From Oscillospiraceae bacterium (lineage in GTDB: Bacteria > Bacillota > Clostridia > Oscillospirales > Oscillospiraceae): a stretch of DNA of 64,000 bases. Where the stretch lies: positions 62,001-126,000 of the forward strand of contig JAFVXA010000039.1 in the NCBI GenBank assembly GCA_017501355.1, in the 5' to 3' direction. The notes under the pieces are model-generated. The model was not told the DNA's origin. It was given only the letters and a program-made list of their open reading frames with translations, and searched no databases. Shown piece after piece: positions 46,394 through 64,000 of the stretch. Numbering within the stretch: the first letter of the stretch is position 1; each line of letters starts with the position of its first letter. The position numbers and the translations under genes were made by a program.

Positions 46394-46413
46394 AGTGAAA
46401 ACTCCTTTTTATT

Positions 46414-47141: not shown

Positions 47142-47220
47142 GGCTGAAGTATCTCTGAAAGACTACCCGCGCCGTTTGTGAACGATTTGTGAAATCTGTT
47201 TTTTCAGAGATGTTTCAGCC
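47142..47220. promoter_or_regulatory. Symmetrical operator between VTC operon and two-component genes
   Basis: A 19-bp inverted repeat with two mismatches (GGCTGAAGTATCTCTGAAA at 47142-47160 and its partner at 47202-47220) encloses two direct copies of TTTGTGAA with an 11-bp period (47175 and 47186). An 11-bp direct repeat is the usual footprint of an OmpR-type regulator dimer. TATAAT lies at 47232 for the plus-strand promoter, and a TTATAT lies on the opposite side. Probably the joint operator bound by the adjacent response regulator. Confidence 0.65.
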
Positions 47221-47277
47221 ATTTGGCGTATTATAATGTTGATGAACAATATCTTCCTCACGAGCAAGGAGTGCAAT

Positions 47278-47952: not shown

Positions 47953-49160
47953 TTAAACGCCTGAGAATCAAATTTGTTTGCATCAACATGGTGATCGTCA
48001 CGGCCATGCTCTGTGTTATTTTCGGTTTGGTCCTGCACTTTACCAGCGCAAGCATGGAAAGAGACAGCGTTGAAATGATGCAGTCGGTGGCAATGTCTAC
48101 CCATAAGCCCGGAGTACCCGGTAAGCATGTTCCGGGATTTCCGTTGCCTCACTTCATCCTTCAACTTACTCCAGGAGGAGAATGGGCAGTCTCTAACAGC
48201 GGTAACTATGACTTAACCGATCCTGCGTTGCTAACGGAGTTGATTGAGCTTTCCTCCACACAGAAGTCCGGTGTTCTGAAAGAATATGGTCTTCGCTTCA
48301 TGCGGGTCACAACGCCTACTACACAGCGCATCGTGTTTGCTGATATGTCACAGGAAATCAGCATGATGAATAATCTTTTGCAAAACTGCCTGCTCATCGG
48401 TGCAGTTAGTTTCATCGTTTTCCTGATCATCAGCATTCTGTTGGCCCGATGGGCGGTAAAGCCGGTGGAATCGGCGTGGGAGCAGCAGAGACAGTTTGTG
48501 GCCGATGCCTCGCATGAATTGAAAACACCCCTGACGGTGATTCTCAGCAATGCCCAGATGCTCTCCGGAAACGGGGAGGATCCGGAACTCCGAGAGAAAT
48601 TGACATCAAATATTCTGACGGTATCTCAGCAGATGAAGGATCTGGTAATGAAACTCCTGAACTCTGCGCAGGTGGATCAGGGGATTGGAACAATGGAGTT
48701 CTCTATATTTAATCTCAGCGACACGGTTTCCAACGCCATGCTGCCCTTTGACTCCATTTTCTATGAGCAGGAAAAGGAACTGGACAGCGATATCCAGGAT
48801 AATATCCTGATTCGGGGCAGCCAGTCTCATCTGGTGCAGGTGATTGACATTCTGCTGGACAATGCTCAGAAATACGGAAACGAACATGGCCATACATGGG
48901 TATCACTGAAGCGACAAGGCACAAAGTATTGTCTGCTGACTGTTGCCAATGAAGGAGCTCCGCTGTCTGCCCGGGAGCGCAAAGATATTTTTAAGCGTTT
49001 CTATCGAGCCGATACTGCACGAGAGCGGACGGGCAGCTACGGATTGGGACTTTCCATAGCAGAAGGCATCGTAAAAGCACACAAGGAAAATATTTGGGTA
49101 GAGAGCAACAGTGGGATCAACACCTTCGCAATTCAACTGCCTGTTACAACTGAAGGCTAA
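47949..49160 (+). CDS. Sensor histidine kinase
   Basis: The 403-residue kinase has two membrane spans (about 8-32 and 146-166) around a 110-residue extracellular domain. Then come a short HAMP-like linker, HisKA with His189 in ADASHELKTPL, and a HATPase domain with N-box LLDNAQKYG, FKRFYRADTAR and GSYGLGLSIAEG. It starts at GTG 47949 overlapping the regulator stop. The extracellular sensor has no recognised fold. Location next to CotH/DUF4956/VTC suggests control of that cluster. Confidence 0.92.
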   Translation: MIKRLRIKFVCINMVIVTAMLCVIFGLVLHFTSASMERDSVEMMQSVAMSTHKPGVPGKHVPGFPLPHFILQLTPGGEWAVSNSGNYDLTDPALLTELIELSSTQKSGVLKEYGLRFMRVTTPTTQRIVFADMSQEISMMNNLLQNCLLIGAVSFIVFLIISILLARWAVKPVESAWEQQRQFVADASHELKTPLTVILSNAQMLSGNGEDPELREKLTSNILTVSQQMKDLVMKLLNSAQVDQGIGTMEFSIFNLSDTVSNAMLPFDSIFYEQEKELDSDIQDNILIRGSQSHLVQVIDILLDNAQKYGNEHGHTWVSLKRQGTKYCLLTVANEGAPLSARERKDIFKRFYRADTARERTGSYGLGLSIAEGIVKAHKENIWVESNSGINTFAIQLPVTTEG

Positions 49161-49212
49161 TAAAAACGCCCCTCTGGGAGCCATTTGAGGGCCCTCAGAG
49201 GGGTTGTTGTTT
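49161..49212 (+). terminator. Terminator, inverted copy of 43470-43510
   Basis: CCCCTCTGGGAGCC...CAGAGGGG stem (49169-49203) followed by TTGTTGTTT. It directly follows the kinase stop codon. Confidence 0.85.
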
Positions 49213-49229
49213 CGCGGGTATGAGATGTC

Positions 49230-49245
49230 GGCCTCAACGAAGGAA
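49230..49245 (-). repeat. Island motif copy at the 3' end of the SLOG gene
   Basis: GGCCTCAACGAAGGAA; on the minus strand it contains the SLOG gene's stop codon. Confidence 0.65.
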
Positions 49246-49743
49246 AGTATCGCTGGCCACATTGTAAATCTCAAGATGGTTCCGTTGCGCATATCTAACA
49301 CACTGGCCGGTGCCACTGCGGCTCTGGCGCTCGTCGTAGTAACAGATTAAGGCGCTTGAACCATCAACCATTTTCTTATTCCGTTCCAAAAACGCACTAT
49401 TGCTGGCCTTGTCGGCGGGTACAGTGTAGACCAGCTTATCGAGCTGCGGGATCAGAGCTGCGTATTCTTCGCGTTGGGCGAGCGTCCACTTAGAGTCATA
49501 ACCGGGGAAGGGGAAGACACCAATGATCCGCAGGTGCGGATATTCTTCTTTTAATCTCAGCAGAAGCCGAAGCGCCATTAAATCGTAACCCAGAGCGCCG
49601 CCGACCGCCGCATAGCGATAGCCGCGAGTGAGCAGCATATGGATCATATCTTCGGTACGACGCTGGATCTTCAGAAGATCATGGTCGGGAATGTTCCTGT
49701 GACCGCTAAAACAGAAAGTTTTTTCTCGCATTATTGACATCAT
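49234..49743 (-). CDS. SLOG-family (YpsA-like) nucleotide-binding protein
   Basis: The 169-residue protein has the SLOG Rossmann pattern: CFSGHR at the N-terminus, a GGALGYDLMALRLLLRL loop-helix, then FPFPGYD and a RNKKMVDGSSALICYYDE helix-strand. YpsA-type proteins bind NAD- or ADP-ribose-like ligands and act in cell division or stress; related SLOG proteins serve as nucleotide sensors in defence systems. It reads divergently from a small XRE regulator across a palindrome-rich 100 bp, which suggests a controlled two-gene module. Confidence 0.82.
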   Translation of the reverse strand: MMSIMREKTFCFSGHRNIPDHDLLKIQRRTEDMIHMLLTRGYRYAAVGGALGYDLMALRLLLRLKEEYPHLRIIGVFPFPGYDSKWTLAQREEYAALIPQLDKLVYTVPADKASNSAFLERNKKMVDGSSALICYYDERQSRSGTGQCVRYAQRNHLEIYNVASDTFLR

Positions 49744-49753
49744 CTCACTCTTA

Positions 49754-49842
49754 GACCAGTATCGCGGTCAATATTTGAGAAAAGAATATCATACACTAAC
49801 CTCAGTTGCAACCAATACTGGTCAATGCGAGGAGTGTATGAT
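49754..49842. promoter_or_regulatory. Nested inverted repeats in the SLOG/XRE divergent region
   Basis: GACCAGTAT (49754-49762) is repeated inverted as ATACTGGTC (49815-49823). ATCATACACT (49788-49797) is repeated inverted as AGTGTATGAT (49833-49842), just ahead of the XRE start. These are plausible operators for the XRE protein. Confidence 0.55.
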
Positions 49843-49844
49843 CC

Positions 49845-50087
49845 ATGGATGAGCAGAAAATCAGAAGAGATCTGAATATGGGCACTAACCTACGCCGGCT
49901 GCGTTTGGAGGCCAAAATCTCTCAAGAAAAGCTCTGCGCGGAGCTGCAGCGCCGCGGCGTGGACATTGGTAGAAGTACCTATGAGAAGTATGAAGCCGGT
50001 GAACTGAACATTCGGGCCAGTGTCATCGTGGAGCTGAAGAAGTTCTACAACTGTGCATACGATGAGTTCTTCGCTGGGCTGGAATAA
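49845..50087 (+). CDS. XRE-family helix-turn-helix regulator
   Basis: The 80-residue protein is a single HTH_3 domain (GTNLRRLRLEAKISQEKLCAELQ, then RSTYEKYEAGE). It is probably a dimeric repressor of itself and the divergent SLOG gene, with the palindromes between them as operators (inference). Length is that of minimal XRE regulators. A terminator follows 8 bases after the stop. Confidence 0.88.
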   Translation: MDEQKIRRDLNMGTNLRRLRLEAKISQEKLCAELQRRGVDIGRSTYEKYEAGELNIRASVIVELKKFYNCAYDEFFAGLE

Positions 50088-50094
50088 AACTATG

Positions 50095-50121
50095 GAGCAG
50101 GGGAGTACCCCTGCTCTTTTT
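50095..50121 (+). terminator. Terminator of the XRE gene
   Basis: GAGCAGGGG / CCCCTGCTC stem with TTTTT, closely related to the one at 42229. Confidence 0.9.
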
Positions 50122-50142
50122 CATGCTCTCTGTTTAGGTTAA

Positions 50143-50171
50143 TTGTGTGCTAATTGGAACTGTGATAGAAT
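50143..50171 (+). promoter_or_regulatory. Promoter of the PIN-domain gene
   Basis: TTGTGT (50143-50148), 17 bases, TAGAAT (50166-50171). Confidence 0.5.
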
Positions 50172-50206
50172 GGCATTGACCACTCTCGTTGAAGGAGATA
50201 GAGAAA

Positions 50207-51352
50207 ATGGGAAAACAGATTTCGGCTGTGCTGATTGATACTTCTGCGTATGACAATAGGCAGTGTGATTTTTCAGGGTTTACTTCGGTGATGATCCCGA
50301 CATTCCTCACCTTGTTGGAAAACAATCGTATTCCGGTTCTCGGTCATCCTATTTTGAGCAATGAGGTGCGTAAGCACATAAAAGGATCACAAATTCTGGA
50401 ACGAGTTCAGGAACTAAACAAATCCATCAAACACTGCAAAGGGGTAATGTCCTCGTTCGGTATTTCTCCAGAGGATCTCCTGGATCAGATGGATATTTGC
50501 CGGGTTGAAAAGACCCTTTTAGATGCCTATGAAGAATTTGGTCGCCGGTTTATTATGCTCCCGTATGTGGATGCGCAGGAGATTTTTGAAGATTACTTCA
50601 ACACAAATCCGCCCTTCTCTGAAAACGGAAAGAAAAAATCCGAATTTCCAGATGCTTTTGTTTTGAAGGGACTTCTTAGGTACTGCGAAGAACACACTGA
50701 TGCACAGATTCTGGTTGTGAGCAATGACTCCGACTGGAAATCAACATTGGACACAAGCCCGCAAATCAATCTGGTTGACACACTCAAAGATGCACTGGTT
50801 TTTCTGTGGCCTCAGCTTAGCGATAAGACAGAGTTTGTCGCACAACTCTGGTCTGCAATAATACCGGAAATAATGGTTGAAATCGGTTCTGCCGCCGAAC
50901 GCGAAGCGTTTAGCCTGGATGGTATTGACGAATTAGAAGATATTGAGGTTTCCAATATCCGTGCTACCAGTATGATTAGCGACATGACGCCTCTGGAGAT
51001 TACAGAGGACTCTGCGCTTATACATATAACCGCTGCTCTCTCTGTTGATGGCGTTGCAGAATACTTTGATGAAAGCCGCTCTTACTGGGATAAGGAAGAT
51101 CATATCTATTATTTCAAGGCGTATTCGCGGATGACTTTTAAGGATGCATCTGCTGAAGTTGAGTGTGAGGTACGGCTGGGTTTTCCGCCCGATGGCAGCA
51201 TGAAACCGGTTGAGATCAAGGATGTTAATATCATCAACAAATGGGACATCTGCATTGATGTGAGCGATGCAGAGACGGAGGAAGAAGATATAACCGACTA
51301 CGGTGAAGACGATTGGTACGAAGAGCAGGCCATGCACCATTCTGCTAAATGA
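50207..51352 (+). CDS. PIN-domain protein (DUF4935-like)
   Basis: The 381-residue protein has an N-terminal PIN nuclease domain: VLIDTSAYD (first Asp), later EFPDAFVLKGLLRY and VVSNDSDWKS supplying further acidic metal ligands (about residues 5-185). A C-terminal region of unknown fold ends in a very acidic tail. PIN proteins cleave RNA; this long version resembles standalone PIN_4/DUF4935 proteins found in defence islands rather than VapC toxins, and no antitoxin is adjacent. GAAGGAGA precedes ATG 50207. It lies just upstream of a type I restriction system. Confidence 0.78.
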   Translation: MGKQISAVLIDTSAYDNRQCDFSGFTSVMIPTFLTLLENNRIPVLGHPILSNEVRKHIKGSQILERVQELNKSIKHCKGVMSSFGISPEDLLDQMDICRVEKTLLDAYEEFGRRFIMLPYVDAQEIFEDYFNTNPPFSENGKKKSEFPDAFVLKGLLRYCEEHTDAQILVVSNDSDWKSTLDTSPQINLVDTLKDALVFLWPQLSDKTEFVAQLWSAIIPEIMVEIGSAAEREAFSLDGIDELEDIEVSNIRATSMISDMTPLEITEDSALIHITAALSVDGVAEYFDESRSYWDKEDHIYYFKAYSRMTFKDASAEVECEVRLGFPPDGSMKPVEIKDVNIINKWDICIDVSDAETEEEDITDYGEDDWYEEQAMHHSAK

Positions 51353-51395
51353 TGCAGCTTCTCCTAGAGATGGTGTAAGTCTGCAATTTAACTTT

Positions 51396-51423
51396 AAGAC
51401 CCGTCAAAATGGCGGGTCTTTCT
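51396..51423 (+). terminator. Terminator of the PIN-domain gene
   Basis: AAGACCCG / CGGGTCTT stem with a T run. Confidence 0.85.
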
Positions 51424-51638
51424 CTTGCTTTGTTCCGCTAAACCCCAGTTTTCCCTCATAGAAACGGCAGAGAACCGAAGAAAGGGGAGAGGGCAAGAGG
51501 CAGGGGAGGGGCTCTATATTTTCAGTTGTAAATTTCATCAAAAAATTGTATACTGATATCAGATATTTCTACAAAAACCTGCGTATTGTTATATAGAGAA
51601 ATTGCTTGGTTTCTTATAGAAGCAGAAAGGAAAAGACC

Positions 51639-54600
51639 ATGGCTGTTTTTAACGAAGATACCCGGGTCAAGATTCCGGCGACAATTCAATACTTGCGGCT
51701 GGGCTATGAATACCAGTCTTTGAAGGATGCCGATATCGATCCGGATACCCGCATCTTCAGAAATAGATTTAAGCCGGCCATTGAAGCGATCAACGGCAGG
51801 TCTTTTACCGATGCTGAAGTGGATGCTTTGATTGACGAGATCCATGATCTGATCAAATATAGCGATCTGGGCAAGGCCTTTTACAACTGGCTGATCAATC
51901 CCCAGGATCGAGTCAAGCTCATCGATTTTGACCATCCGGAGAAGAACGACTTCGCAGTTGTAAACGAGCTGACTTTCGGTAAGGACGGCGCCGGCGATGA
52001 ACGCGTTGGCTCCTTCCGTCCCGATATCAATGTCCTCGTCAATGGTATTCCTCTTGCGTTCCTTGAGGTGAAGAAGCCTAACAATGAGGGTGGTATTCAG
52101 GCTGAGTTCAACCGTATGCTGAATAAGCGTCTGGACAAACCTGAGTATAAGAAATACTTCAATATGATCCAGATCGTATCCTTCTCCAACAACATGGAGT
52201 ATGAAGACGAGGATGATACGGCGCTGGCGGAAGATGTCAAGGCCGGTTCTTTCTATACTACCCCCAACGGTCAGAGAACTTCCTTCTCCTTCTTCCGCGA
52301 GGAGCAGCCCAAGACCACCGGTTTTGTCACGATCTCCATGGATCGCGTGAAGGCTGTTTTGAAGGACAATCACTATTCTCCTACTGAAGCTGATACTCCG
52401 GAATTCCAGACAAATCTGGACATGAACACTCCCTGCAACCGCTTTGTCACCTCCATGTTTGAGAAGGAGCGGTTCCTGTATTTCATCCATTACGGCCTTA
52501 CATATGTGAAGAACACGACGCCGGAGAAGCACATCATGCGCTATCCCCAGTTCTTCGCCTCCAAGGCGCTCCTGAAGCGTCTGGATAACGGCGGTAAGTC
52601 CGGCATCATCTGGCATACTCAGGGCAGTGGCAAGACTGCTCTTGCAGCCATGTCTTCTCGTATTCTGCGGGATTACTATGCAGAAAAGGGTGTCAGTGCC
52701 CGCTTCTATTATGTTGTTGACCGCTTGGATCTGCTGACCCAGGTCAGCGGCGAAATGACCAAGCGTGGTCTGAATGTCATCAATGTCAACAGTAAGAGCG
52801 AGTTCGAAAAGGAGCTGAACAAGCCCGTTTCGGATCATATTGCAATGGACACTGACGGTGAGATTACTGTGGTCAACATCCAGAAGTTTGACGATGAGAT
52901 GCCTGTGGCCAAAAACGCTTATGAAGCCAAGACCCAGCGCGTGATTTTCGTTGATGAAGCCCACCGCAGCTATAAGGCCGACGGTGAGTTCTTTAAGAAC
53001 CTAATGTTGGTGGATACTGATGCCGTCTATGTCGCCCTGACAGGTACGCCGTTGCTCTCCAAGAAAGAGCGCTCCAACCTGAAGTTCGGCGACTATATCC
53101 ATAAATATTTCTATGACAAGTCTATTGCTGACGGATACACGCTGCGCATCAAAAAGGAATCGATCGAGACGACCGCAAGAGCGGAGATCAAGAAAAACCT
53201 CGAGCTGGAGAATCCTGCCAAGAATAAGGCTGATGTGTACGAGTCCGAGGACTATATCCAGGCTCTTTGCAAGTTCATTGAGAAGGACTTTTCCTATTTC
53301 CGTCTGACCAATACCGACGATACCATCGGCGGCATGATCGTTTGCGCCTCCAATCCGCAGGCAAAGAAGATCAAGCGCTGGTTTGATGAGCAGTCCAAGC
53401 TGTCTGCTGGTCTTGTGATCAGTGATGAGGAAATCCCCTCCGCCGTCAACAAGAGCACTCAGATTGCCTTCAAGGAGACCTTGAAGCCTGATATTCTTGT
53501 TGTCCACCAGATGCTGACCACCGGCTATGATGTCAACCGTTTGAAGAAGATGTACCTGCTGCGCAATGCAAAGGAGCATACGCTGCTGCAGACCATTTCT
53601 CGCGTAAATCGCCCTTATAAGAGCCCCAATGGGAAAGTCTATCAGTACGGCTATATCGTCGATTTTGTCGATATCGCGGAAGAGTATGACCGCACCATCG
53701 AGATGTACCTGAAAGAGATCGAATCGGACTTTGGCGAGGATGGCGAGGATACGGCTCTGACCGGTCTGATCATCGGCCCGGATGACATCAACGCCAAATA
53801 TCAGAAGTATGTCTCCGAACTGGAATCCATGATCGATACGGCTAATCTGGAGCGGTTCTCCAAGCAGTTGACATTCATGAACAAGGATGCCCTGCTGACC
53901 ATTAGACGCCTACTGAACGGCATTAAAGCCTGCCACACGGAGTTCAAACTTTCCAGAGCAGACGCCTATGCAGCTCAGATTGACATCGAGCACACGAAGA
54001 AACTGCTGAAGGCCGTACAGGCCCGCATCGACTTTGTGAATCTGCGATCCACCCCTACGAACCTGCTGTCCATCATCTCCAATAAGGATGTGGTGGATAT
54101 CATCTATGAATTCCTGAAGACGAAGATTGAGATTCTTGACCTCGGTAAGTTGATTGAGGCTATGTCCAAGGTGGCGACCTCTGAGGAATACGGTACATTG
54201 ACCGATCTCGTAACCAAAGTTCAGAACGAGATTAAAAAGAACCGTAACCATAACCAGATTGAGATGATCAAGCTGGACGAGCTGCTCCAGAAGCTGTTCG
54301 ACATGATGGATATCGGCAATCTGGCCGACATCAACGAGGAGCTGCGGAAGATCCTGGAGGAAGCCCGCCGAATCAACGAGGAGAACGAGCGCCTGTCCGC
54401 CCGCTACGATGGCAACTACGCCTTCGTAAAGACCTATACAGACGCCGTGGAGATCCATTCCGAGTACGACAAGGAAGATATCGCCGCAGTTCTGGACATC
54501 GTCTACGAGGCTGTAAAGGAGATCAAGACGGCCAATATCCTGATCCTGCAGGGAAGGGATAACTTCGTCTCCAGCGTCAGTAACAAGACGATCACCAAGC

Positions 54601-54692
54601 TGATCAAGGCCAAGCTCTATGGCAAGCTGGCACTCAAGAACTGGTACAGCAGCCTGCTGACCGAAACCTATGCAAACATGAAAATGTTCTAA
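51639..54692 (+). CDS. hsdR: Type I restriction enzyme R subunit (HsdR)
   Basis: The 1,017-residue protein has an N-terminal PD-(D/E)xK nuclease (PDIN...LEVKKP, about residues 128-150), SF2 helicase motif I TQGSGKTALAA (about 327-337), DEAH box VDEAHRSYK, and later motifs TGTPLL and QTISRVNRPY. It cleaves unmodified DNA after ATP-driven translocation as part of an R2M2S complex. ATG 51639 follows AAAGGAAAAG. hsdM begins 15 bases downstream; R-M-S order on one transcript. Confidence 0.95.
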   Translation: MAVFNEDTRVKIPATIQYLRLGYEYQSLKDADIDPDTRIFRNRFKPAIEAINGRSFTDAEVDALIDEIHDLIKYSDLGKAFYNWLINPQDRVKLIDFDHPEKNDFAVVNELTFGKDGAGDERVGSFRPDINVLVNGIPLAFLEVKKPNNEGGIQAEFNRMLNKRLDKPEYKKYFNMIQIVSFSNNMEYEDEDDTALAEDVKAGSFYTTPNGQRTSFSFFREEQPKTTGFVTISMDRVKAVLKDNHYSPTEADTPEFQTNLDMNTPCNRFVTSMFEKERFLYFIHYGLTYVKNTTPEKHIMRYPQFFASKALLKRLDNGGKSGIIWHTQGSGKTALAAMSSRILRDYYAEKGVSARFYYVVDRLDLLTQVSGEMTKRGLNVINVNSKSEFEKELNKPVSDHIAMDTDGEITVVNIQKFDDEMPVAKNAYEAKTQRVIFVDEAHRSYKADGEFFKNLMLVDTDAVYVALTGTPLLSKKERSNLKFGDYIHKYFYDKSIADGYTLRIKKESIETTARAEIKKNLELENPAKNKADVYESEDYIQALCKFIEKDFSYFRLTNTDDTIGGMIVCASNPQAKKIKRWFDEQSKLSAGLVISDEEIPSAVNKSTQIAFKETLKPDILVVHQMLTTGYDVNRLKKMYLLRNAKEHTLLQTISRVNRPYKSPNGKVYQYGYIVDFVDIAEEYDRTIEMYLKEIESDFGEDGEDTALTGLIIGPDDINAKYQKYVSELESMIDTANLERFSKQLTFMNKDALLTIRRLLNGIKACHTEFKLSRADAYAAQIDIEHTKKLLKAVQARIDFVNLRSTPTNLLSIISNKDVVDIIYEFLKTKIEILDLGKLIEAMSKVATSEEYGTLTDLVTKVQNEIKKNRNHNQIEMIKLDELLQKLFDMMDIGNLADINEELRKILEEARRINEENERLSARYDGNYAFVKTYTDAVEIHSEYDKEDIAAVLDIVYEAVKEIKTANILILQGRDNFVSSVSNKTITKLIKAKLYGKLALKNWYSSLLTETYANMKMF

Positions 54693-54707
54693 AAGGAGCC
54701 TTTCGTT

Positions 54708-56366
54708 ATGGCATTTCACGATTTGGAAAAGAAGATCCATCAGATGGTCGATGACCTGCAGGGCCTTTGCTCTACCGTCGGTCTGAGCAATACGGCCAAT
54801 GAGGAAGTCGTCGTTACTTCTGTGTTCCTCTATAAGTTTCTGAATGATAAGTTCATGTACAGCCTCGGTAAATTCTCTGAGGAGATTGATGTCCCGGTGG
54901 ACAGTATCCTCAAGAACGAGGATGACATGTTGGATGCCTTCTATGATTACAACTCCAAGGATGTTGCATTCACCTACGAGGACACCATCCAGTATCTCAT
55001 CAACCACTTGGAGCAGAAGGACTTCTACCAGCAGTTTGATGACGCGCTGGTTCGTATCAGCAAGAATGCCAAGAACGACGCCTTCGCCGTGGAAACGGCC
55101 GATGGCGAGAAAACCGAGCTGTTCGAACCCCTGACGGTTATGGTGGAAGGCGCACAGCGCAACAACTTTGCTAAGGCTATCTTTGGTATCATTGCGCAGG
55201 AGAAGTTCGATTTCTCCGAGGCTTTCGAGGGTGGGTTCGACTTCTATTCCGCTATCTTCGAGTACCTCATCAAGAACTACAATGTGGCCAGCGGTACTTA
55301 CGCTGAGTATTTCACGCCTCAGACTGTTTCTTCCATCATTGCCAAGATCCTGGTTGGTATGAGCAACAAGATTGAAGCGGCGGAGATCTATGACCCCGCC
55401 GCCGGTTCCGGCTCCCTGATCCTGCATCTGGCGCATGAGCTGGGACAGGAGTCCGGCATGAACCGTGCCATCGTTTACACCCAGGACATTTCCAAGAAGT
55501 CCACCCGTTTTCTGCGCCTGAATATGATGCTGAATGGAAAGTCTGAGTCTCTGGGCAACATCATTCGTGGCGATACTCTGGAAAGCCCTGCTCACTACAA
55601 TGTAGAGCATGAGCCCGATTCCGGCCTGAAGAAGTTCTCCTATATTACCACCAATCCGCCCTTCAAGACTGACTTCTCTGCAACCCGTGATCGGATTGAG
55701 CAAAAGTGGCAGGACACCCGCCGTTTCTTCGCCGGTGTGCCCAAGATTCCCAATGCGAAGAAGGAGTCCATGGCCATCTATCTGATGTTCATTCAGCATG
55801 TCCTGTATTCCATGAAGGAGGATGGCAAGGCTGCCATCGTTGTCCCCACAGGCTTCCTGACCGCCAAGAGCGGCATCGAATTCGCGATCCGCAGCAAGAT
55901 GGTAGAGGAAGGTATGCTCAAGGGCGTCATCTCCATGCCCTCCAACATCTTCGCCAACACCGGCACCAATGTCTCTGTGCTTTTCCTGGACAAGGCTGGA
56001 GACTTTGGAGATGCGATTCTGATCGACGCCTCCAAGCTGGGCTCTAAGGTCAAGGAAGGGAAGAACCAGAAGACCGTTTTGAGCGACAATGAGGTTAAGC
56101 GCATCATCGACACCTTCCTCGCCCATGAGAATGTGGACGATTTTGCTGTAGTGGTCTCTCATGAGGACATCGCTGCAAAGAACTGTAGCTTCTCCGCCGG
56201 ACAGTATTTCGAGGTGAAGATCGAGTACATCGATATCACTGCAGAGGAATTCCAGGCGAAGATGGAGGGCTATAAGGCCAGTCTGCGCGGACGGTTTGCT
56301 AAGGGACATGAGTTGGAAAAGCAGATCATGAACCAGCTTTGTGGAGTGTATTTCAATGAAAATTAA
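54708..56366 (+). CDS. hsdM: Type I DNA methyltransferase subunit (HsdM)
   Basis: The 552-residue protein has the N-terminal HsdM helical domain and an N6-adenine methyltransferase core with SAM motif DPAAGSGSL (about 226-234) and catalytic NPPF (about 312). Modification of the host sequence protects it from HsdR. AAAGGAG precedes the ATG. Its 3' end overlaps the hsdS start by 11 nt. Confidence 0.95.
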   Translation: MAFHDLEKKIHQMVDDLQGLCSTVGLSNTANEEVVVTSVFLYKFLNDKFMYSLGKFSEEIDVPVDSILKNEDDMLDAFYDYNSKDVAFTYEDTIQYLINHLEQKDFYQQFDDALVRISKNAKNDAFAVETADGEKTELFEPLTVMVEGAQRNNFAKAIFGIIAQEKFDFSEAFEGGFDFYSAIFEYLIKNYNVASGTYAEYFTPQTVSSIIAKILVGMSNKIEAAEIYDPAAGSGSLILHLAHELGQESGMNRAIVYTQDISKKSTRFLRLNMMLNGKSESLGNIIRGDTLESPAHYNVEHEPDSGLKKFSYITTNPPFKTDFSATRDRIEQKWQDTRRFFAGVPKIPNAKKESMAIYLMFIQHVLYSMKEDGKAAIVVPTGFLTAKSGIEFAIRSKMVEEGMLKGVISMPSNIFANTGTNVSVLFLDKAGDFGDAILIDASKLGSKVKEGKNQKTVLSDNEVKRIIDTFLAHENVDDFAVVVSHEDIAAKNCSFSAGQYFEVKIEYIDITAEEFQAKMEGYKASLRGRFAKGHELEKQIMNQLCGVYFNEN

Positions 56367-57591
56367 AGATATTACTACAAAAATTGGTAGTGGTGCAACT
56401 CCCACTGGAGGCGAAAATGCCTATAAAGAATCTGGCATAGCACTTATTCGAAGTCAAAATGTTCTTGATTTCAGTTTTTCAAACCATGGGTTGGCTTATA
56501 TTGATGAAGTACAAGCGCAGAAGCTTGACGGTGTTACTGTAAAAAAGGGTGATGTTCTTCTGAATATTACCGGAGACTCAATTGCGAGATGTTGCATGGC
56601 TCCTGAAGAGTTTTTACCTGCAAGAGTGAATCAGCATGTTGCCATTATTCGCTCCAAAGATGTCTCTTCCGAGTATCTCATGTACTATTTGCAATACATG
56701 AAACCTTATTTACTGCAAATTTGTGGTGTCGGCGGAACGCGCAATGCACTCACTAAGGAAAGTATTGAAAACATTCCTTTTTTTAAACAAGAAAACGAAG
56801 AAAAAATTGCTGCGGTACTATCTGATATCGATGCTAAAATCGCCAACAACGCCATCTGCGCTGATCTCGAAGGTATGGCGAAGTTGCTCTATGACTACTG
56901 GTTTGTCCAGTTTGATTTCCCTGATGAGAACGGAAAGCCTTACAAGAGTAGCGGCGGCAAGATGGTTTGGAATGAGGAATTGAAGCGGGAGATTCCGGAG
57001 GAGTGGGAAGCTAAGTCACTCAAAAGCTTAGCTACAATACAAACTGAAAGTATTTCACCGTTTGAAAAGAAAGATTCCATTTTCGAACACTACAGTATTC
57101 CAGCATTCGATGATGGGCGTTACCCTGTATTTGAAACGGGTAGCGAAATTGACAGCAATAAGTACCGTGTTCCTCACGCAGCAATACTTGTTTCAAAACT
57201 CAATCCTCAGTTTAAGCGCATTTGGGATCCTTTGAATACGGACGAAACATGTATTTGTTCCACGGAATTTATGCCTTTCGTATGCCGGAACAACTTGTTG
57301 CGCGGATATGTGTATTTTCTTTTGAATTCTGATGCATTCCAAAAATACCTTGTTCAATGCTCTTCAAGTTCTACAGGAAGCAGAAAAAGAATGCAACCTG
57401 AACTGTGTGGAGACTTCTTGCTGGCTATTCCTGAAAGCTCTTGTTTGATGGAACAGTTCAGTAAGATTGTTATTCCTATGTTAGAGGATTCGAAAAACCG
57501 AATTACTGAAAATGCAGAATTAACATCCCTGCGTGATTTCCTCCTACCCATGCTGATGAATGGACAGGTGAAGGTAAAGGAGGGCGCGTGA
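56356..57591 (+). CDS. hsdS: Type I specificity subunit (HsdS)
   Basis: The 411-residue protein contains two target-recognition domains (about 1-150 and 215-380) separated and followed by conserved helices (AAVLSDIDAKIANNA; a C-terminal LTSLRDFLLPMLMNGQV). This is the full two-TRD layout that sets a bipartite recognition site. The first TRD is AT-richer than hsdM/hsdR, consistent with TRD exchange between strains. ATG 56356 lies inside the end of hsdM. No second hsdS fragment or invertase is adjacent. Confidence 0.93.
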   Translation: MKIKDITTKIGSGATPTGGENAYKESGIALIRSQNVLDFSFSNHGLAYIDEVQAQKLDGVTVKKGDVLLNITGDSIARCCMAPEEFLPARVNQHVAIIRSKDVSSEYLMYYLQYMKPYLLQICGVGGTRNALTKESIENIPFFKQENEEKIAAVLSDIDAKIANNAICADLEGMAKLLYDYWFVQFDFPDENGKPYKSSGGKMVWNEELKREIPEEWEAKSLKSLATIQTESISPFEKKDSIFEHYSIPAFDDGRYPVFETGSEIDSNKYRVPHAAILVSKLNPQFKRIWDPLNTDETCICSTEFMPFVCRNNLLRGYVYFLLNSDAFQKYLVQCSSSSTGSRKRMQPELCGDFLLAIPESSCLMEQFSKIVIPMLEDSKNRITENAELTSLRDFLLPMLMNGQVKVKEGA

Positions 57592-57971
57592 AGCTCTACG
57601 GTTTTCTTTCTGCGGTATTCCTGTGTATTCGGCAGTTCTGTCTTCCGAACCCTTTTGACGCACTTGGAGAAGGAGTTACTATTGTCTGGAAAGGCGTTCC
57701 CATTCTTCTTGCTCCCGTGCTTTTGAACTGGATTGCAGAAGCATTTTTACATCCAATAACCTTTGGTGTAGTAGGCATATACTACACGCGAGGGAGTGAG
57801 CCGGCACTTGGAAGTATCCTCTACATGGTCTTTTATGCGGTACACACCGGTGTTTTGTATCTTCTATGCCGGGCGTATCCGTCAACCGTCCTAATGATAC
57901 TGGTGCTTATTGGATATATCGCGATGCACGCCTTATTTATCCGACTGCTAAACAGGGCGGATTTCATGTAA
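57588..57971 (+). CDS. Small membrane protein coupled to the type I restriction operon
   Basis: The 127-residue protein has about four hydrophobic helices and few charged residues. Its GTG start overlaps the hsdS stop by 4 nt (GTGA), which makes it the fourth gene of the restriction operon. A bidirectional terminator follows. It is not a known Hsd component, and I do not recognise the family. It could be a membrane-acting accessory of the defence module or a passenger. Confidence 0.7.
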   Translation: MKLYGFLSAVFLCIRQFCLPNPFDALGEGVTIVWKGVPILLAPVLLNWIAEAFLHPITFGVVGIYYTRGSEPALGSILYMVFYAVHTGVLYLLCRAYPSTVLMILVLIGYIAMHALFIRLLNRADFM

Positions 57972-57990
57972 AACTGAATCATAAAAAGAG

Positions 57991-58033
57991 AAGCTATCTG
58001 TAAAAAAATCAAACCTTACAGATAGCTTCTTTC
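57991..58033. terminator. Terminator of the restriction operon
   Basis: Perfect 14-bp stem GAAGCTATCTGTAA / TTACAGATAGCTTC with A-rich and T-rich flanks. The 270 bp from here to the next gene contain no supported gene; a TATAGT box lies at about 58248. Confidence 0.9.
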
Positions 58034-58299
58034 CTCATTTTACACATCTTAAAGGCCATTCTAAGGCTCTAGGAGGGGTTTTCTCTTTGTCCAGCCCCGT
58101 AGTCGACCACAACGAAAAATGTCCGCTGACGCAGCCTGACGGACGACCAGGCCATAGTACACAATCAGGGAAGGGTAGGGCCCCATATAAACCTAAGACT
58201 TGGAACAAAATGTCGATTTCTATCTGTTTTTTCTGAAAAATTGATGTATAGTATTTGTAGAACGACCCACCGTCACCGTTATCAGAAGGGAGGGGCGCT

Positions 58300-59514
58300 A
58301 TGGCCATCCAAAAGTATTCTTATGTTCCCAAAGAACCGGATAAGGACGGACTCCGGAGATATGTGCTGGAAACTCACCCTGCGTCCCCGATCTGCGAGGC
58401 GTGTGGTGCAAAAATGCGGTCCAAAGGCACCAGCAGAACAAAGGACAAACCTCGCGTCCTTTATGACATTGATTCTGCAGACGGAGAAGTGATCAGAATT
58501 GACTACTGGCCCAAGAAGTACCGCTGCACGAACCCGGACTGCAACAAGGTGATCCCGGATCCCAACGCTCCGCCGCTCACCAAGGAGAAGGGCACCGAGG
58601 AGTTTCGCGCATACCTCGCCGAAGAGACCCTGTCCAACTCCAAGCTGAGCGTGAAAGAAGCAGGAGCCAAATACGGCGTTTCTGGCGCGTATGTGTCGGA
58701 GAGCATTCAGGCGCTTCTGAAAAAGCACAGCGCAACTGTAGTAAGCTTCTTGCCATGCAGCAAGATCCATATTGAGGCTGCGGACTGCTATCAGACCCCA
58801 TGCTATGTGGTCTTTGGATACGCAGATTCGCTTAGAATGTGGGTTCTTTTGGACATTATCGAAGCAGGGAAGTACAACCTGATCGTGGATCTCTGCGAAA
58901 AGGTAAGCACCCCCGCCGAAATCTGCTGCCCATTGGATCAGCAGCTCGTTAGTATTCTGAAGGACAAATTCCCCAAGGTTCTTTTGAAGATCCCGACCGA
59001 TAGCTTCTTCTCGTATCTGAACGATTATGCGGATATGGTAATTTCGCAGAGATCGGATGATATAACAAAGCTCGTGCGCGATACGGTTGATGCTATAAGG
59101 ATGCGCATAAGGATGGGCTTTACCAGCTACAAGAGCATGGAGCAATGGTGGATGTCCCTTGCCGATAATCCTCCAGATGATCTCTATGCGAGCAAGTTTG
59201 GAGAACCATCGTTCCCAGACATATATGGAGATCTAAATGGTCATTGTCTGGAGGGACTATACCAGTTCCAGACAGCAAAATACCAGGTGCCGGACTGCGT
59301 AGAAAGGATTCTGAATCTCTTAGCTCGATTACACAAGGCGCATACACCTGTAGAAATCGTACGGTTTAGACTGCTCTATCAGGCAGAGTTCTTCCGCCGA
59401 ACCCTTAAGCAAAACAAGCAAATGATCTATCGCGGCGGATACAGCTATTTTGGCGCTCAGATGCCTCAGATTGAAGAGTGGATCAATTGTTACACACTCA
59501 TCCCAACCGACTAA
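58300..59514 (+). CDS. ISL3-like transposase-related protein
   Basis: The 404-residue protein has an N-terminal zinc-binding part (CEACGAKMRSKGT..., RIDYWPKKYRCTNPDC) like the ISL3-transposase zinc finger. A helix-turn-helix region (LSVKEAGAKYGVSGAYVSE) follows, then an RNase-H-like segment starting near IEAADCYQTPCYVVFGYADS. I cannot assign a full DDE triad, so it may be catalytically altered or domesticated. No terminal inverted repeats flank it. GGGAGGGG precedes the ATG. It stands alone between the restriction operon and the Tn7-like end. Confidence 0.6.
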   Translation: MAIQKYSYVPKEPDKDGLRRYVLETHPASPICEACGAKMRSKGTSRTKDKPRVLYDIDSADGEVIRIDYWPKKYRCTNPDCNKVIPDPNAPPLTKEKGTEEFRAYLAEETLSNSKLSVKEAGAKYGVSGAYVSESIQALLKKHSATVVSFLPCSKIHIEAADCYQTPCYVVFGYADSLRMWVLLDIIEAGKYNLIVDLCEKVSTPAEICCPLDQQLVSILKDKFPKVLLKIPTDSFFSYLNDYADMVISQRSDDITKLVRDTVDAIRMRIRMGFTSYKSMEQWWMSLADNPPDDLYASKFGEPSFPDIYGDLNGHCLEGLYQFQTAKYQVPDCVERILNLLARLHKAHTPVEIVRFRLLYQAEFFRRTLKQNKQMIYRGGYSYFGAQMPQIEEWINCYTLIPTD

Positions 59515-59529
59515 TCTCATATCGTCACA

Positions 59530-59562
59530 TACCCTCTCTGGACTCCAGAGGGGGTATTTTTT
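59530..59562 (+). terminator. Terminator of the ISL3-like gene
   Basis: TACCCTCTCTGGA / TCCAGAGGGGGTA stem followed by TTTTTT. Confidence 0.9.
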
Positions 59563-59651: not shown

Positions 59652-59748
59652 GTCCCCTCATTTATGAACGATAAAACCATTGAAATTACTGGGGTTACAG
59701 GGTTTTCAAGTTGGCATAAAAGCATAGTGTCCCCTCATTCATAAACGA
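59652..59748. repeat. Tn7-like transposon end with repeated TnsB-type sites
   Basis: GTCCCCTCATTTATGAACGA (59652-59671) and GTCCCCTCATTCATAAACGA (59729-59748) match at 18 of 20 bases, lie in the same orientation and are 77 bp apart. They lie just outside an operon ending in tnsA-tnsB that reads inward, the arrangement expected of a Tn7-family end. A weaker GAACGATA match at 59577 may be a third site. The exact terminal bases and target duplication cannot be fixed without the other end. Confidence 0.7.
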
Positions 59749-59862: not shown

Positions 59863-60372
59863 ATGATTATTGACCCGAAGAAAGGATCATCGATCAGCCT
59901 GGATCCCGATGAACTCGTAGAGTTCAGTGAGGTAGGTAACGCTATCCCTTTTCTTTATCCAACCCTGAAAAGGTATACTGTTGAGCCCCGCGTCCATTTC
60001 CAGCTCGTATTGACCGAGAGGAGTGAAAGCATCTCTGTAGACCTGCCCCCGGACATTACGCATGAGCTCGCCAACAAGATGTCTGGTGAATGTTATGCAT
60101 GGAAAGCCAAGGCGCTGGATCAGCACGGTGAAGACTTCAATTTTTTGGTGATGTATCGCTATGTGGGCACTGTTCGGCTGGTTGGAAAAGGTGTAGTGCA
60201 GCAGATGTTGGAGTTTGGCGTAGAGAAGGGTGGTAACTTCGCCATGAGGATGGCAAGATCGGAACCCAGCGAGCTCGACTACACAAACTTTATGCACATT
60301 ACGATCCCGGACTACGAGTTGGGTAACCTGGCTCGTCAGCTCGAGTTTGTAGCTCAGATTACGGAGGTTTAA
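59863..60372 (+). CDS. Unknown Tn7-like element protein 1
   Basis: The 169-residue protein is soluble and acidic, with alternating beta strands and a closing helix. It contains RVHFQLVLTER, ISVDLPPDITHELANKM, a central VMYRYVGTVRLVGKG and a final YELGNLARQLEFVAQI helix. No known motif. ATG 59863 follows AAGGAGG. It opens the operon that runs without gaps into tnsA and tnsB. Its layout (strands, VDLP followed by an amphipathic helix, strands, final helix) is shared with the next gene, suggesting a distant duplicated family. Confidence 0.8.
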   Translation: MIIDPKKGSSISLDPDELVEFSEVGNAIPFLYPTLKRYTVEPRVHFQLVLTERSESISVDLPPDITHELANKMSGECYAWKAKALDQHGEDFNFLVMYRYVGTVRLVGKGVVQQMLEFGVEKGGNFAMRMARSEPSELDYTNFMHITIPDYELGNLARQLEFVAQITEV

Positions 60373-60375
60373 GCT

Positions 60376-60888
60376 ATGTTCTTCAATACTGGTTTTCTGT
60401 ATGCAGAGATCATGAACGATGCCGCTCCTGATCCGCATCCCTGTGTACCGATCGTTTACCCGAATGCTTCCTGTCCTAACTGCGAAACCGCATCGATCCA
60501 TCTGGAGTTTAAGCTGCCTACCATTGATGATTCCGAAAGCGTAAAGATGGATCTGCCCCTGGCAATGGTGGCAGAGCTCACCGAGCAGTGTGCCGCCGTT
60601 GAATACGGAGTCACCCGGCCGGGAGATGAAGTTATATTTAGTTTCCGCACCCGCGTCTCCATGGGTAAGGCATCTCTGAGACAGCGGATGGATGTAGTCG
60701 TTAACGAGAATGGACAGGTTTATTTCAAGCTTTCCAACACCTTCCGGAAAGGAGTCCCGTTCCTGAAGCACACCAGTCAGCAGATTCGGGTTCATCTTTC
60801 CGAAAAACAGTTGGAGGCGTTCTGTGACCACCTGGATTTCCTGGTAGAGATGTACGACGAAGAGGTGGAATGCGATGAAGGAAATTAA
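60376..60888 (+). CDS. Unknown Tn7-like element protein 2
   Basis: The 170-residue protein begins 3 bases after protein 1. It has a CPNC pair near residue 33, then SIHLEFKLP, VKMDLPLAMVAELTEQC, strands around FSFRTRVSMG and YFKLSNTF, and a closing helix SEKQLEAFCDHLDFLVEM. The order of elements mirrors protein 1, especially the MDLP/VDLP-helix and the final helix. Function unknown; not similar to TnsC, TniQ, TnsE or Cas proteins. It overlaps protein 3 by 14 nt. Confidence 0.8.
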   Translation: MFFNTGFLYAEIMNDAAPDPHPCVPIVYPNASCPNCETASIHLEFKLPTIDDSESVKMDLPLAMVAELTEQCAAVEYGVTRPGDEVIFSFRTRVSMGKASLRQRMDVVVNENGQVYFKLSNTFRKGVPFLKHTSQQIRVHLSEKQLEAFCDHLDFLVEMYDEEVECDEGN

Positions 60889-61393
60889 CTTGACTGGTCT
60901 GTATTTTAAAGGACTTGAGGGCGATAAGGAAGAGCATCCCTGCAATCTTCTGGTGCTCCCGACGCCGAAATCAGTATCCTATGACCTCGGCATTCGTCTG
61001 AGTATGTTCTGCGAAGAAACCGGCAACATGGTGCCGGTGGACATGCCTATTCTCTACGCGCAGCGGTTCTGCAGCATGGCAGAAACGCAGGAGTATCTCA
61101 GTAGGGACTTTTGGGAGTTCAACGAGTGTAATTCTGTGAATTACTGGATGATGGTTTCATGGCTGGTTCTGGCCGCCGGTCAGGATCCGTGCTATCAGAG
61201 TTTTGGATTTGGCCAGTCTGTAGATGGCCGTTTTGTACTTATGGTTTACCGGGACCTGGGGCGTTACAGCCCCGGCCTCGGCCATCCGCCGGTGCGGTAT
61301 TTAGCCTATTTAGATGAGGGTACGCTTGCAACAATCGTCAGCGAAATCGCAGCGCTGACTCTGGAAGGGGAGGGAGAGCACCATGATTCGTAA
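60875..61393 (+). CDS. Unknown Tn7-like element protein 3
   Basis: The 172-residue protein starts inside the end of gene 2 (AAGAGGTG upstream). It has SYDLGIRLSMF, VPVDMPILYAQRFCSM (again a V-D-hydrophobic-P strand leading to a helix), a tryptophan-rich middle, GRFVLMVYRDLGRY and a closing TLATIVSEIAALTLE helix. No enzymatic motif is visible. Similar length and element order to its neighbours suggest a divergent paralogue. Overlaps gene 4 by 11 nt. Confidence 0.78.
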   Translation: MKEINLTGLYFKGLEGDKEEHPCNLLVLPTPKSVSYDLGIRLSMFCEETGNMVPVDMPILYAQRFCSMAETQEYLSRDFWEFNECNSVNYWMMVSWLVLAAGQDPCYQSFGFGQSVDGRFVLMVYRDLGRYSPGLGHPPVRYLAYLDEGTLATIVSEIAALTLEGEGEHHDS

Positions 61394-61901
61394 CGATGCA
61401 TTCATGACCGCAAGGGTCAATAGTTTTATCAGTCCCAGCTATGAGGAGTTCCAGTGTTTTCCGCTGATCAACGCTGATGGGGAAGAGGTGCAACTCGGAT
61501 TCTTTCGTTGCGGCGTAGAGGATCCATTCATTGCTATTAAGCTCAACCCCGATATCGCTGCCCATCTGGGCAGTGGTATCCTCAGCGAAAATGTAGATTT
61601 GATTGACCAGTGGTATGAAGACCTTGGAAGCAAGATGACCGCCGATGACGCTTGTGCTTACTATTGCGCATGGAGCACGGGAGATAGGTTCCAGGCCGTC
61701 GCATACGGCATTTCAGAAGACAGACGCATTGTTTTGATGATTTCGGATATTGACACTACTCAGAAGCTTACATTTAGCCCTAAGTCAAACCATTTCGCCA
61801 TTTATTGTCCGAAATCATACTTCTACAATCTGGGCCGCAACCTTTTACTGGCGGCGGACGGTATCGAAATGGAAAAAGAAAGGAGATTCTTGAATCTATG
61901 A
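61383..61901 (+). CDS. Unknown Tn7-like element protein 4
   Basis: The 172-residue protein has VQLGFFRCG, FIAIKLNPDIAAHLGSG (strand-Pro-helix as in proteins 1-3), AVAYGISEDRRIVLMISDID (close in pattern to GRFVLMVYRDL of protein 3) and a closing YFYNLGRNLLLAADGIEM helix. Its stop overlaps the tnsA start by 4 nt, so translation is coupled to the transposase genes. Unknown function; a transposition regulator, target-selection factor or structural partner of TnsA/TnsB are all possible. Confidence 0.78.
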   Translation: MIRNDAFMTARVNSFISPSYEEFQCFPLINADGEEVQLGFFRCGVEDPFIAIKLNPDIAAHLGSGILSENVDLIDQWYEDLGSKMTADDACAYYCAWSTGDRFQAVAYGISEDRRIVLMISDIDTTQKLTFSPKSNHFAIYCPKSYFYNLGRNLLLAADGIEMEKERRFLNL

Positions 61902-62581
61902 ATTTTGACAAGCCTATCGAAATGCCACGCGGCAGCCACTATGGCAGCGATTATTACATCCTTTTTAGTGCCAAAATTGGGCGTGTGGTGCGCTTCTTCT
62001 CAAAGCTGGAGTACATGAATTTTCTCAGTCTCGAGCTTGATCCTACTGTAGAAAAATTTTGTGAGCAACCTCTAAAAATCCAAATTACGGAAGATAACAA
62101 GATCAAAGAGGCTGTCTTTGATATGTGGGTCAAGTATAAGGATGGTAGGGAAGAGCTGCAGGAGGTCAAATATTCCAAGGAACTCACTGATGACTCAAAA
62201 TCTGCGATTCGTTCTCAGGAACAAATCCGTCGTCAGAAACACTGGTGCGAAGACAACAATGTTCCCTTCGTTGTACGCACGGAGAATGATCTGCTCAAGG
62301 GAGAATATCTGATTCAGAATCAGAGTGTACTTGCGGCTCTGGTCCGGCGATATACACCCAATAGTGCTCACTACTATGATAAGCTGATTGTTCGCTACCT
62401 TGAGGACGCTGCTCATGATGGGCGGAAAAAGGTTCTTGTAGGAGAACTCATAAGCAAAGAACTGCTGCCTATTGGTTGCGAATGGGCTCATCTCGCCTAC
62501 ATGTATGCGAACGGGATGATTGGTTTGAACATCGCAACAAAACCCTTGGATCATAAAACGGAGGTACGACTGTATGCCTAA
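61898..62581 (+). CDS. tnsA: TnsA-like transposon endonuclease
   Basis: The 227-residue protein matches TnsA. It has an N-terminal nuclease domain with Glu38 (SKLEYMNFLSLELD), Asp75 (EAVFDMWVKY) and Glu89-x-Lys91 (LQEVKYSKE), the E-D-ExK set that cuts the 5' strands at Tn7 ends. A C-terminal winged-helix domain for TnsB/TnsC contact follows. The in-frame upstream start at 61805 is rejected: ATG 61898 follows AAAGGAGA and overlaps the previous stop. It gives a cut-and-paste rather than copy-in mechanism. Confidence 0.9.
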   Translation: MNFDKPIEMPRGSHYGSDYYILFSAKIGRVVRFFSKLEYMNFLSLELDPTVEKFCEQPLKIQITEDNKIKEAVFDMWVKYKDGREELQEVKYSKELTDDSKSAIRSQEQIRRQKHWCEDNNVPFVVRTENDLLKGEYLIQNQSVLAALVRRYTPNSAHYYDKLIVRYLEDAAHDGRKKVLVGELISKELLPIGCEWAHLAYMYANGMIGLNIATKPLDHKTEVRLYA

Positions 62582-64000
62582 ATTGGTAGACAAGCTGTTT
62601 TTGCGTACTCTGCGCGAAACTTGGACAGAAGTGAATACAACAGGGATGTCGGAAGCCGATGCTGCTAAGTTCAAGAAGCAAAAGCTGGCTGTGGATCTCT
62701 ATATCGATGATACTCCTAACGATATCATCGTTTCACGCACAGGTCTTACAAAGGCCAGAATTTGTCAACTGGCCAAAAAGTGCGCAACTCCTGTATCCAC
62801 AACCGGAGAGATCCCCGGCTACAATGCTCTGATTCCTGGCAAGATTTTGTCTCCTGCACAGACAAAGCTTGAATTGTTCTTTGATGAATATCCAGAGATC
62901 AAGAACAAAATTAAAGGCACTTATTTCGGTGACAAGGCCTACACGAGCGAGCGCCGTACCAATATTCGCAGCCTGCACAGCATTTTCATTGAAGAATGCA
63001 GAATTGCCGGTGTCCAAGATTACGAATTTCCTTTCACCCTCAAGGATTATGGGTACAGCCGTTTTTGTGAATACATTGCAAAGATGCGCGATGAAGAAAT
63101 GATGCTGGCCATTAAACGAGAAGGAAAGGATCAGCGTCAGCAGTTTCTTTCTACCGGCTACGGAAAATCTCTTGCAATCAATCCTAAGGCTCCTTACGAT
63201 ATGGTCCAAATTGATGGTCACATCATTGATGTACTGACCGTCGTTACCACCGAGGGGATCGATGGAGTCGAAATCACCGATATCGCAACCCGAATGTGGT
63301 TGATTGCTGTAATTGATGTAGCTACCCGCTGCATCATCGGTTATTCTGTATCGCCGCAGATGAATTACAACCAGTACGATGTGCTGAAAGCCATCCAAAG
63401 TTCTATCGTTCCTCATGACCACAAGCCGTTTAAATTAAAAAGCCTTTCTTACCCAGAGGGCGGCGGTTTTCCGTCAGAAGCAATTCCGGAAACCAAGTGG
63501 GCTGCGTTCAATACAATTATGCTGGATAACGCAAAATCTCACGCTGCATTCAATGTGGTTAACAAGCTGACAAACACTCTTGGCTGTGTAATGAACTTTG
63601 GCTCTGTGGCCACGCCCGAATCTCGTGGTATCGTAGAACGCTTTTTCGGCACTCTGGAGCGCTCTGGCTTCCATCGGCTGCCCAACACCACCGGCAGCAA
63701 TCCACGGGATCTAAAGCGTCAAGACGCAGAGAAGTACGCCAAGGAAATCAAGCTTACCTATGAGGATGTTTGCGAGATCTTGGAGTCTCTCATTGCTGAG
63801 TACAATAACAGTGCTCATAGCGCCCTGCATGGTTATACCCCGCTTGAGATGATGGCTACCAAAATCCACGATGCTCGTATGCCGATTTATACTGTGCCTC
63901 AGGATCAACGGGAAAATGTCATGAACTTGACTCATTTCACCATTGAACGCAACCTGCGTGGTTGTTACGCCAAGGGTAAACAGCTTCGGATCAACTTCAA
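62574..64000 (+). CDS. tnsB: TnsB-like DDE transposase (partial, runs off window)
   Basis: The first 475 residues are present. An N-terminal DNA-binding part leads into an rve/RNase-H catalytic core with Asp214 (VQIDGHIID), Asp318 (IMLDNAKSH) and Glu355 (RGIVERFFG), the D-D-36-E spacing of TnsB. A beta-barrel begins near residue 440. TnsB binds the repeated end sites and joins the 3' ends to target DNA. ATG 62574 follows GGAGGT and overlaps tnsA by 8 nt. tnsC and a target selector such as tniQ/tnsD should follow beyond the window. Confidence 0.93.
   Translation, partial: MPKLVDKLFLRTLRETWTEVNTTGMSEADAAKFKKQKLAVDLYIDDTPNDIIVSRTGLTKARICQLAKKCATPVSTTGEIPGYNALIPGKILSPAQTKLELFFDEYPEIKNKIKGTYFGDKAYTSERRTNIRSLHSIFIEECRIAGVQDYEFPFTLKDYGYSRFCEYIAKMRDEEMMLAIKREGKDQRQQFLSTGYGKSLAINPKAPYDMVQIDGHIIDVLTVVTTEGIDGVEITDIATRMWLIAVIDVATRCIIGYSVSPQMNYNQYDVLKAIQSSIVPHDHKPFKLKSLSYPEGGGFPSEAIPETKWAAFNTIMLDNAKSHAAFNVVNKLTNTLGCVMNFGSVATPESRGIVERFFGTLERSGFHRLPNTTGSNPRDLKRQDAEKYAKEIKLTYEDVCEILESLIAEYNNSAHSALHGYTPLEMMATKIHDARMPIYTVPQDQRENVMNLTHFTIERNLRGCYAKGKQLRINF

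What the first reader, a model, noticed from the sequence alone, without database searches (positions are those of the whole stretch)
59863..61901. Four unrecognised, overlapping genes of equal size placed between a Tn7-like end and tnsA
Seen: four consecutive ORFs of 169-172 residues, separated by 3 nt or overlapping by 11-14 nt, with gene 4 overlapping tnsA by 4 nt. All share an order of elements: strands, a V-D/K-x-P strand-to-helix turn, strands, final amphipathic helix; proteins 3 and 4 also share the pattern (G/R)R(F/I)VLM. Known: Tn7-type operons normally begin with tnsA beside the end, and cargo usually lies at the other side. Inference: these form a family of divergent paralogues acting in transposition (regulation, target choice or complex assembly) rather than passenger cargo.
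Basis: partly seen in the sequence, partly recalled or inferred. Interest (0 to 1): 0.85.

Follow-up and report, generated by a model that had tools for sequence, protein, structure and literature searches.

The report
Orphan cargo genes heading transposon operon
Four small genes of unknown kind sit at the front of the transposition operon of a roughly 29-kb Tn7-like jumping element, but the element's real end lies about 21 kb further upstream, so they are more probably passenger genes (perhaps a defence module) than parts of the transposition machine.

Summary
The four ORFs are real: coordinates, sizes and overlaps are exact, and all four frames score as coding. They head one co-directional run, ORF1-4-tnsA-tnsB-tnsC-tniQ. 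The "Tn7-like end" at about 59.6 kb is not supported. Paired inverted arrays of putative TnsB sites lie at 38.46-38.61 kb (minus strand) and 67.08-67.27 kb (plus strand, beyond the window, same contig). The outer boundary, TGTCC at 38,389, is 22 bp after a conserved xer gene. The four genes are therefore the last part of about 23 kb between the tnsA-side end and tnsA, which also holds a type I restriction-modification system. Relatives show the same layout: CBASS in a Klebsiella plasmid element, a metal P-type ATPase in Acetobacterium, and Wadjet-like jetC overlapping tnsA by 4 nt in a gammaproteobacterial MAG. Lying before tnsA, or overlapping it, is thus no evidence for a transposition role. 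None of the TnsB relatives examined carries the four genes, and no library gave a credible match. ORF1 and ORF2 are paralogues; ORF3 is weak and ORF4 unproven. Models are too poor to name a fold. Best reading: an orphan cargo module, possibly defensive, co-expressed with tns. A transposition-accessory role remains possible but unsupported.

The parts
37254..38366 (+). conserved host xer-type tyrosine recombinase gene next to which the element sits
   Evidence: present in 37 of 40 related genomes, usually one strong match
38389..38610 (-). probable tnsA-side end (right end in the convention of PMC8649781): TGTCC terminus, hairpin with T run, array of TnsB-site-like repeats on the minus strand, plus one plus-strand copy at 38461
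   Evidence: matrix hits 13-25 bits; inverted match to the array at 67.08-67.27 kb above shuffles; same TGTC + GAAAGC..GCTTTCTTTTTT layout as Butyrivibrio element ends
38955..59514 (.). other genes between the end and the operon: BspA-type LRR protein, CotH, VTC, response regulator and histidine kinase, PIN-domain protein, type I R-M (51606-57591), 404-aa zinc-ribbon protein
   Evidence: Pfam; absent downstream of xer in the related genomes fetched
59529..59557 (+). terminator-like hairpin after the 404-aa gene, before the four-gene operon
   Evidence: L002 7529-7557
59652..59748 (+). two GTCCCCTCATTYATRAACGA repeats 77 bp apart; taken here as possible operators, not a transposon end
   Evidence: L002 7652-7671 and 7729-7748; no TnsB-site match
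59863..60372 (+). ORF1, 169 aa, orphan
   Evidence: no family match
60376..60888 (+). ORF2, 170 aa, paralogue of ORF1
60875..61393 (+). ORF3, 172 aa, possibly related to ORF1/2
61383..61901 (+). ORF4, 172 aa, overlaps tnsA by 4 nt; kinship to the others unproven
61898..62581 (+). tnsA, 227 aa
   Evidence: PF08722 E 4.8e-15
62574..64000 (+). tnsB (continues to 64553; then tnsC 64559-65509, tniQ-like 65527-66885, plus-strand array 67084-67268, contig ends 67358)

Best explanation
The four genes are an orphan cargo module carried in the block between the tnsA-side end and tnsA of a Tn7-like transposon of about 29 kb (38,389 to about 67,356) that sits just behind the host xer gene. Shown: real coding genes, one co-directional gene run with tnsABC-tniQ, ORF1 and ORF2 paralogous, paired arrays outside the block, other cargo in the same block. 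Inferred: they are made together in matched amounts (tight gene coupling, equal size) and form a hetero-oligomer of small beta-rich proteins. As in relatives, where CBASS lies in this slot and Wadjet-like genes lie directly before tnsA, the module most likely protects the host or the element from competing phages or mobile DNA. Its promoter now also drives the tns genes.
For: Paired inverted arrays flank the whole block, with none at 59.6 kb. A type I R-M system lies in the same block (and ORFs). Relatives: Klebsiella pNY3A with ends at about 1.1 and 16.7 kb of L009 and CBASS between end and tnsA; Acetobacterium with an ArsR-type regulator and metal P-type ATPase between end and tnsA; L037 with a tniQ-like gene, jetA, a 246-aa gene and jetC before tnsA, jetC overlapping it by 4 nt. 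The genes are absent from all TnsB relatives fetched, as expected of exchangeable cargo.
Against: No match to any defence model, so the defence reading rests on position only. The four genes overlap tnsA and leave it no promoter gap, unlike nearly all relatives, where tnsA starts its own unit. They are the only genes of the block in the same operon as tns. The fold is unknown.
Confidence: 0.55

Rival explanations
1. The four proteins are accessory transposition factors (regulation, target choice or complex assembly): paralogues that form a complex with TnsA/TnsB or TniQ and are made from the same operon.
For: ATGA overlap with tnsA, four tightly packed genes of equal length at the head of the tns run; no separate tns promoter region; TnsB sites are far from the tns promoter here, so ordinary regulation from the end may be lost.
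Against: None of the related elements, down from 47% TnsB identity, needs or carries them; cargo before or overlapping tnsA occurs in relatives; no similarity to Tn7 or CAST components.
Confidence: 0.27
2. The four proteins are regulators or autorepressors of the combined operon, acting at the inverted repeats before ORF1 and replacing TnsB repression from the distant end.
For: Imperfect inverted repeats before ORF1 (L002 7658-7671/7735-7748 and 7782-7794/7815-7827); the low-confidence ORF3 model has a repeated four-strand-plus-helix order, as in some nucleic-acid binders.
Against: No recognised DNA-binding domain; model pLDDT 55 and Foldseek E above 0.5; four co-regulators would be unusual.
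Confidence: 0.12
3. The ORFs are unrelated small genes that happen to be neighbours; equal size and alike layout are coincidence.
For: ORF4 shows no significant similarity to ORF1 or ORF2.
Against: ORF1-ORF2 similarity is clear; ORF2-ORF3 and ORF3-ORF4 scores just exceed the best of unrelated segments; four near-identical lengths in one run.
Confidence: 0.06

Closest known systems
Tn7-like transposons (TnsA-TnsB-TnsC-TniQ), as surveyed in PMC8649781
   Same: TnsA, TnsB, TnsC and a TniQ-like protein in canonical order; paired inverted arrays, minus strand upstream and plus strand downstream of tnsB, as that paper describes; length about 29 kb; cargo with an R-M system
   Different: about 23 kb of genes lies between the tnsA-side end and tnsA, and four orphan genes are fused to the head of the tns gene run
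Lachnospiraceae/Butyrivibrio and Ruminiclostridium relatives (L012-L026, L035, L036)
   Same: TnsB 39-47% identical, same gene order, same style of end (TGTC, hairpin, repeats) in Butyrivibrio
   Different: where the end can be read it lies about 0.3-0.4 kb from tnsA; no ORF1-4
Klebsiella grimontii pNY3A element (L009)
   Same: cargo between the tnsA-side end and tnsA, in the tns direction next to tnsA
   Different: the cargo there is a recognisable CBASS, with a 150-bp gap before tnsA
L037 gammaproteobacterial element
   Same: the gene before tnsA overlaps it by 4 nt
   Different: that gene is a Wadjet-like jetC with jetA upstream

Membership tests
Tn7-like transposon | TnsA endonuclease domain | tested here: met
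   PF08722 E 4.8e-15, above the curated cut-off
Tn7-like transposon | TnsB transposase of the Mu/Tn7 type | tested here: met
   47% identity over 8-584 to another TnsB with matching neighbours; D214, D318 and E355 invariant in the alignment
Tn7-like transposon | TnsC AAA+ ATPase | tested here: met
   AAA_22 1.1e-12 and TniB 1.4e-5, both above cut-off
Tn7-like transposon | TniQ/TnsD target selector | tested here: inconclusive
   right place and CPEC..H..H pattern, but only PADLOC TniQ E 0.014 and no Pfam match
Tn7-like transposon | paired inverted arrays of transposase sites at both ends | tested here: met
   3 by 3 sites, 38.4-38.6 kb against 67.0-67.3 kb; shuffles gave 0
Tn7-like transposon | 5-bp target-site duplication | tested here: inconclusive
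   the contig ends 2 nt after the presumed far terminus; those 2 nt (AG) agree with AGAAG at the other flank; the junction was not found on another contig
CRISPR-associated transposon (CAST) | Cas effector proteins encoded next to tns genes | tested here: not met
   the four ORFs match no PADLOC (which includes Cas models), Pfam or NCBIfam model
known anti-phage defence system | match of ORF1-4 to a described defence protein | tested here: not met
   no PADLOC match at E up to 0.5
one family of four paralogues | significant mutual sequence similarity | tested here: inconclusive
   ORF1-ORF2 yes (3e-5; z 7.4); ORF2-ORF3 z 4.4; ORF3-ORF4 z 3; others at noise
PUR/Whirly-type nucleic-acid binders | repeated four-strand-plus-helix fold | tested here: inconclusive
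   that order of elements in the ORF3 model, but pLDDT 55; a Whirly chain (3r9z) at Z 3.1 (rmsd 5.0, 94 aligned) is tied with unrelated chains

The most novel reading that the evidence does not exclude
Four translationally coupled small proteins form a new accessory complex of a Tn7-like transposon that controls or retargets TnsABC, replacing end-linked TnsB regulation in an element whose end has been moved 23 kb from tnsA.
Probability: 0.22. Interest if true: 0.75.

Novelty: new variant of a known kind. Interest (0 to 1): 0.42.

Why it matters
In this transposon clade the slot between the tnsA-side end and tnsA is used for cargo, including defence systems, and cargo can be fused to the tns gene run. 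Position next to tnsA is therefore a poor guide to transposition function, but a useful place to look for unrecognised defence genes. If the four orphan genes proved to be either a new defence system or a new transposition complex, that would be a concrete discovery; at present they are a well-placed candidate.

Tried and rejected
No homologue of ORF1-4 in: 99 related genomes (ORF1), a profile of the four in 196 genomes of the class (only sub-threshold fragments), viral contigs, plasmids (ORF1-4) and phages (ORF2 and ORF3), or any fetched locus. One plasmid match of ORF4 (Aulosira, E 6e-3, 29% over 133 aa) was examined: the target is a predicted lipoprotein unlike ORF1-3, so it was set aside as probable chance. 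A four-way sum-of-pairs test was uninformative. AlphaFold models had pLDDT 40 and 55 and gave no trustworthy fold match; absence of a family from those lists proves nothing. TnsA as a single query found no relatives in genome contigs; a TnsB alignment did. Attempts to find the far flank of the element on another contig failed. No Rfam match in 56.0-67.4 kb.

Full report
Observation. The four ORFs exist as described: 59863-60372, 60376-60888, 60875-61393 and 61383-61901, of 169, 170, 172 and 172 aa, with a 3-nt gap, 14- and 11-nt overlaps and a 4-nt ATGA overlap with tnsA at 61898. Codon statistics trained on other genes of the contig favour each frame over the five alternatives, so these are genes. 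Each has a Shine-Dalgarno-like sequence. A terminator-like hairpin closes the upstream 404-aa gene, and the run then continues without a comparable gap through tnsA, tnsB, tnsC and a TniQ-like gene on the same contig.

Kinship of the four. ORF1 and ORF2 are clearly related (BLASTP 3e-5 as a single comparison; z 7.4 against shuffles). ORF2-ORF3 (z 4.4) and ORF3-ORF4 (z 3.0) are weak, and the remaining pairs lie near noise. No Pfam, PHROG, NCBIfam or PADLOC model matches any of them credibly. Structure prediction from the four sequences alone gave pLDDT 40 (ORF1) and 55 (ORF3). The ORF3 model shows strands-helix-four strands-helix, but fold comparison gave nothing trustworthy.

Where the transposon ends. 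The region after tniQ holds six tandem units of 30-32 bp (L002 15084-15268, window coordinate 67084-67268). A matrix of these units finds nothing above background at 59.5-59.9 kb, but finds an inverted array at 38.49-38.61 kb (up to 25 bits). An independent search for inverted site pairs between the DNA upstream of tnsA and that downstream of tniQ returned the same two places, with no comparable hit in shuffles. The 38.39-kb boundary reads TGTCC, then a GAAAGC..GCTTTCTTTTTT hairpin, then the repeats. This is the layout of the Butyrivibrio elements, whose end is fixed at TGTCAG by comparing six different insertion sites. The boundary lies 22 bp after the stop of a xer-type gene present in 37 of 40 related genomes, and the genes at 38.9-59.5 kb are not found behind xer in the relatives fetched. 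The orientation, minus strand upstream and plus strand downstream of tnsB, is that reported for Tn7-like elements (PMC8649781). The contig stops 2 nt after a plausible ACA terminus. The element therefore most likely spans 38,389 to about 67,356. The far flank was not found, so the target duplication is unproven.

What this means for the four genes. They form the last 2 kb of about 23 kb that also carries a type I R-M system, a two-component system, CotH and VTC proteins and others. The relatives show that this slot is regular cargo space. In the Klebsiella grimontii plasmid element the arrays lie at about 1.1 and 16.7 kb of L009, with a full CBASS set (cyclase, E1-E2, JAB, SAVED-HNH) ending 150 bp before tnsA. 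In Acetobacterium the array lies 3.6 kb before tnsA, with an ArsR-type regulator and a metal P-type ATPase between (gene names from sequence, not from a family search). In L037, jetA, a 246-aa gene and jetC stand between a TniQ-like gene and tnsA, and jetC overlaps tnsA by 4 nt. Gabija, Lamassu-like and Ppl-like proteins lie upstream of tnsA in other relatives, but there the ends could not be placed beyond them, or (L028) the end lies next to tnsA, so those are not counted. In many other relatives the end is next to tnsA and tnsA starts its own unit.

Interpretation. Best supported is cargo: an orphan multi-gene module, translationally packed and now driving tns expression. A defence role is an inference from the slot's use in relatives, not from any match. 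A transposition-accessory role keeps some weight because of the direct coupling to tnsA and the lost link between the TnsB sites and the tns promoter, but no test here supports it, and no relative needs the genes. Because no homologue was found anywhere, function cannot be settled from these data.

Noticed in passing
window 58300-59514: 404-aa protein with an N-terminal zinc ribbon and HTH-like stretch, no family match; may derive from an ISL3-like transposase (impression from sequence only). It lies just before the four-gene operon.
   Followed up: partly
window 38771-38921 and 41195-41343: Inverted repeat of about 150 bp, 75% identical, flanking the BspA-type LRR gene.
   Followed up: no
L037 698-9957: Tn7-like genes with Wadjet-like jetA and jetC between a TniQ-like gene and tnsA; jetC overlaps tnsA by 4 nt and no jetD was seen before tnsA.
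   Followed up: partly
L009 1080-16920: Klebsiella grimontii pNY3A: CBASS carried in a Tn7-like element on a plasmid, between the end and tnsA.
   Followed up: partly
L018-L021, L024, L035: Near-identical Tn7-like element at six different sites in Butyrivibrio genomes, twice directly beside the start of a tyrosine recombinase gene (L021, L024).
   Followed up: partly
L108 4860-5555: Cyanobacterial plasmid lipoprotein with a weak match (E 6e-3) to ORF4, near an SSB gene; probably chance.
   Followed up: yes
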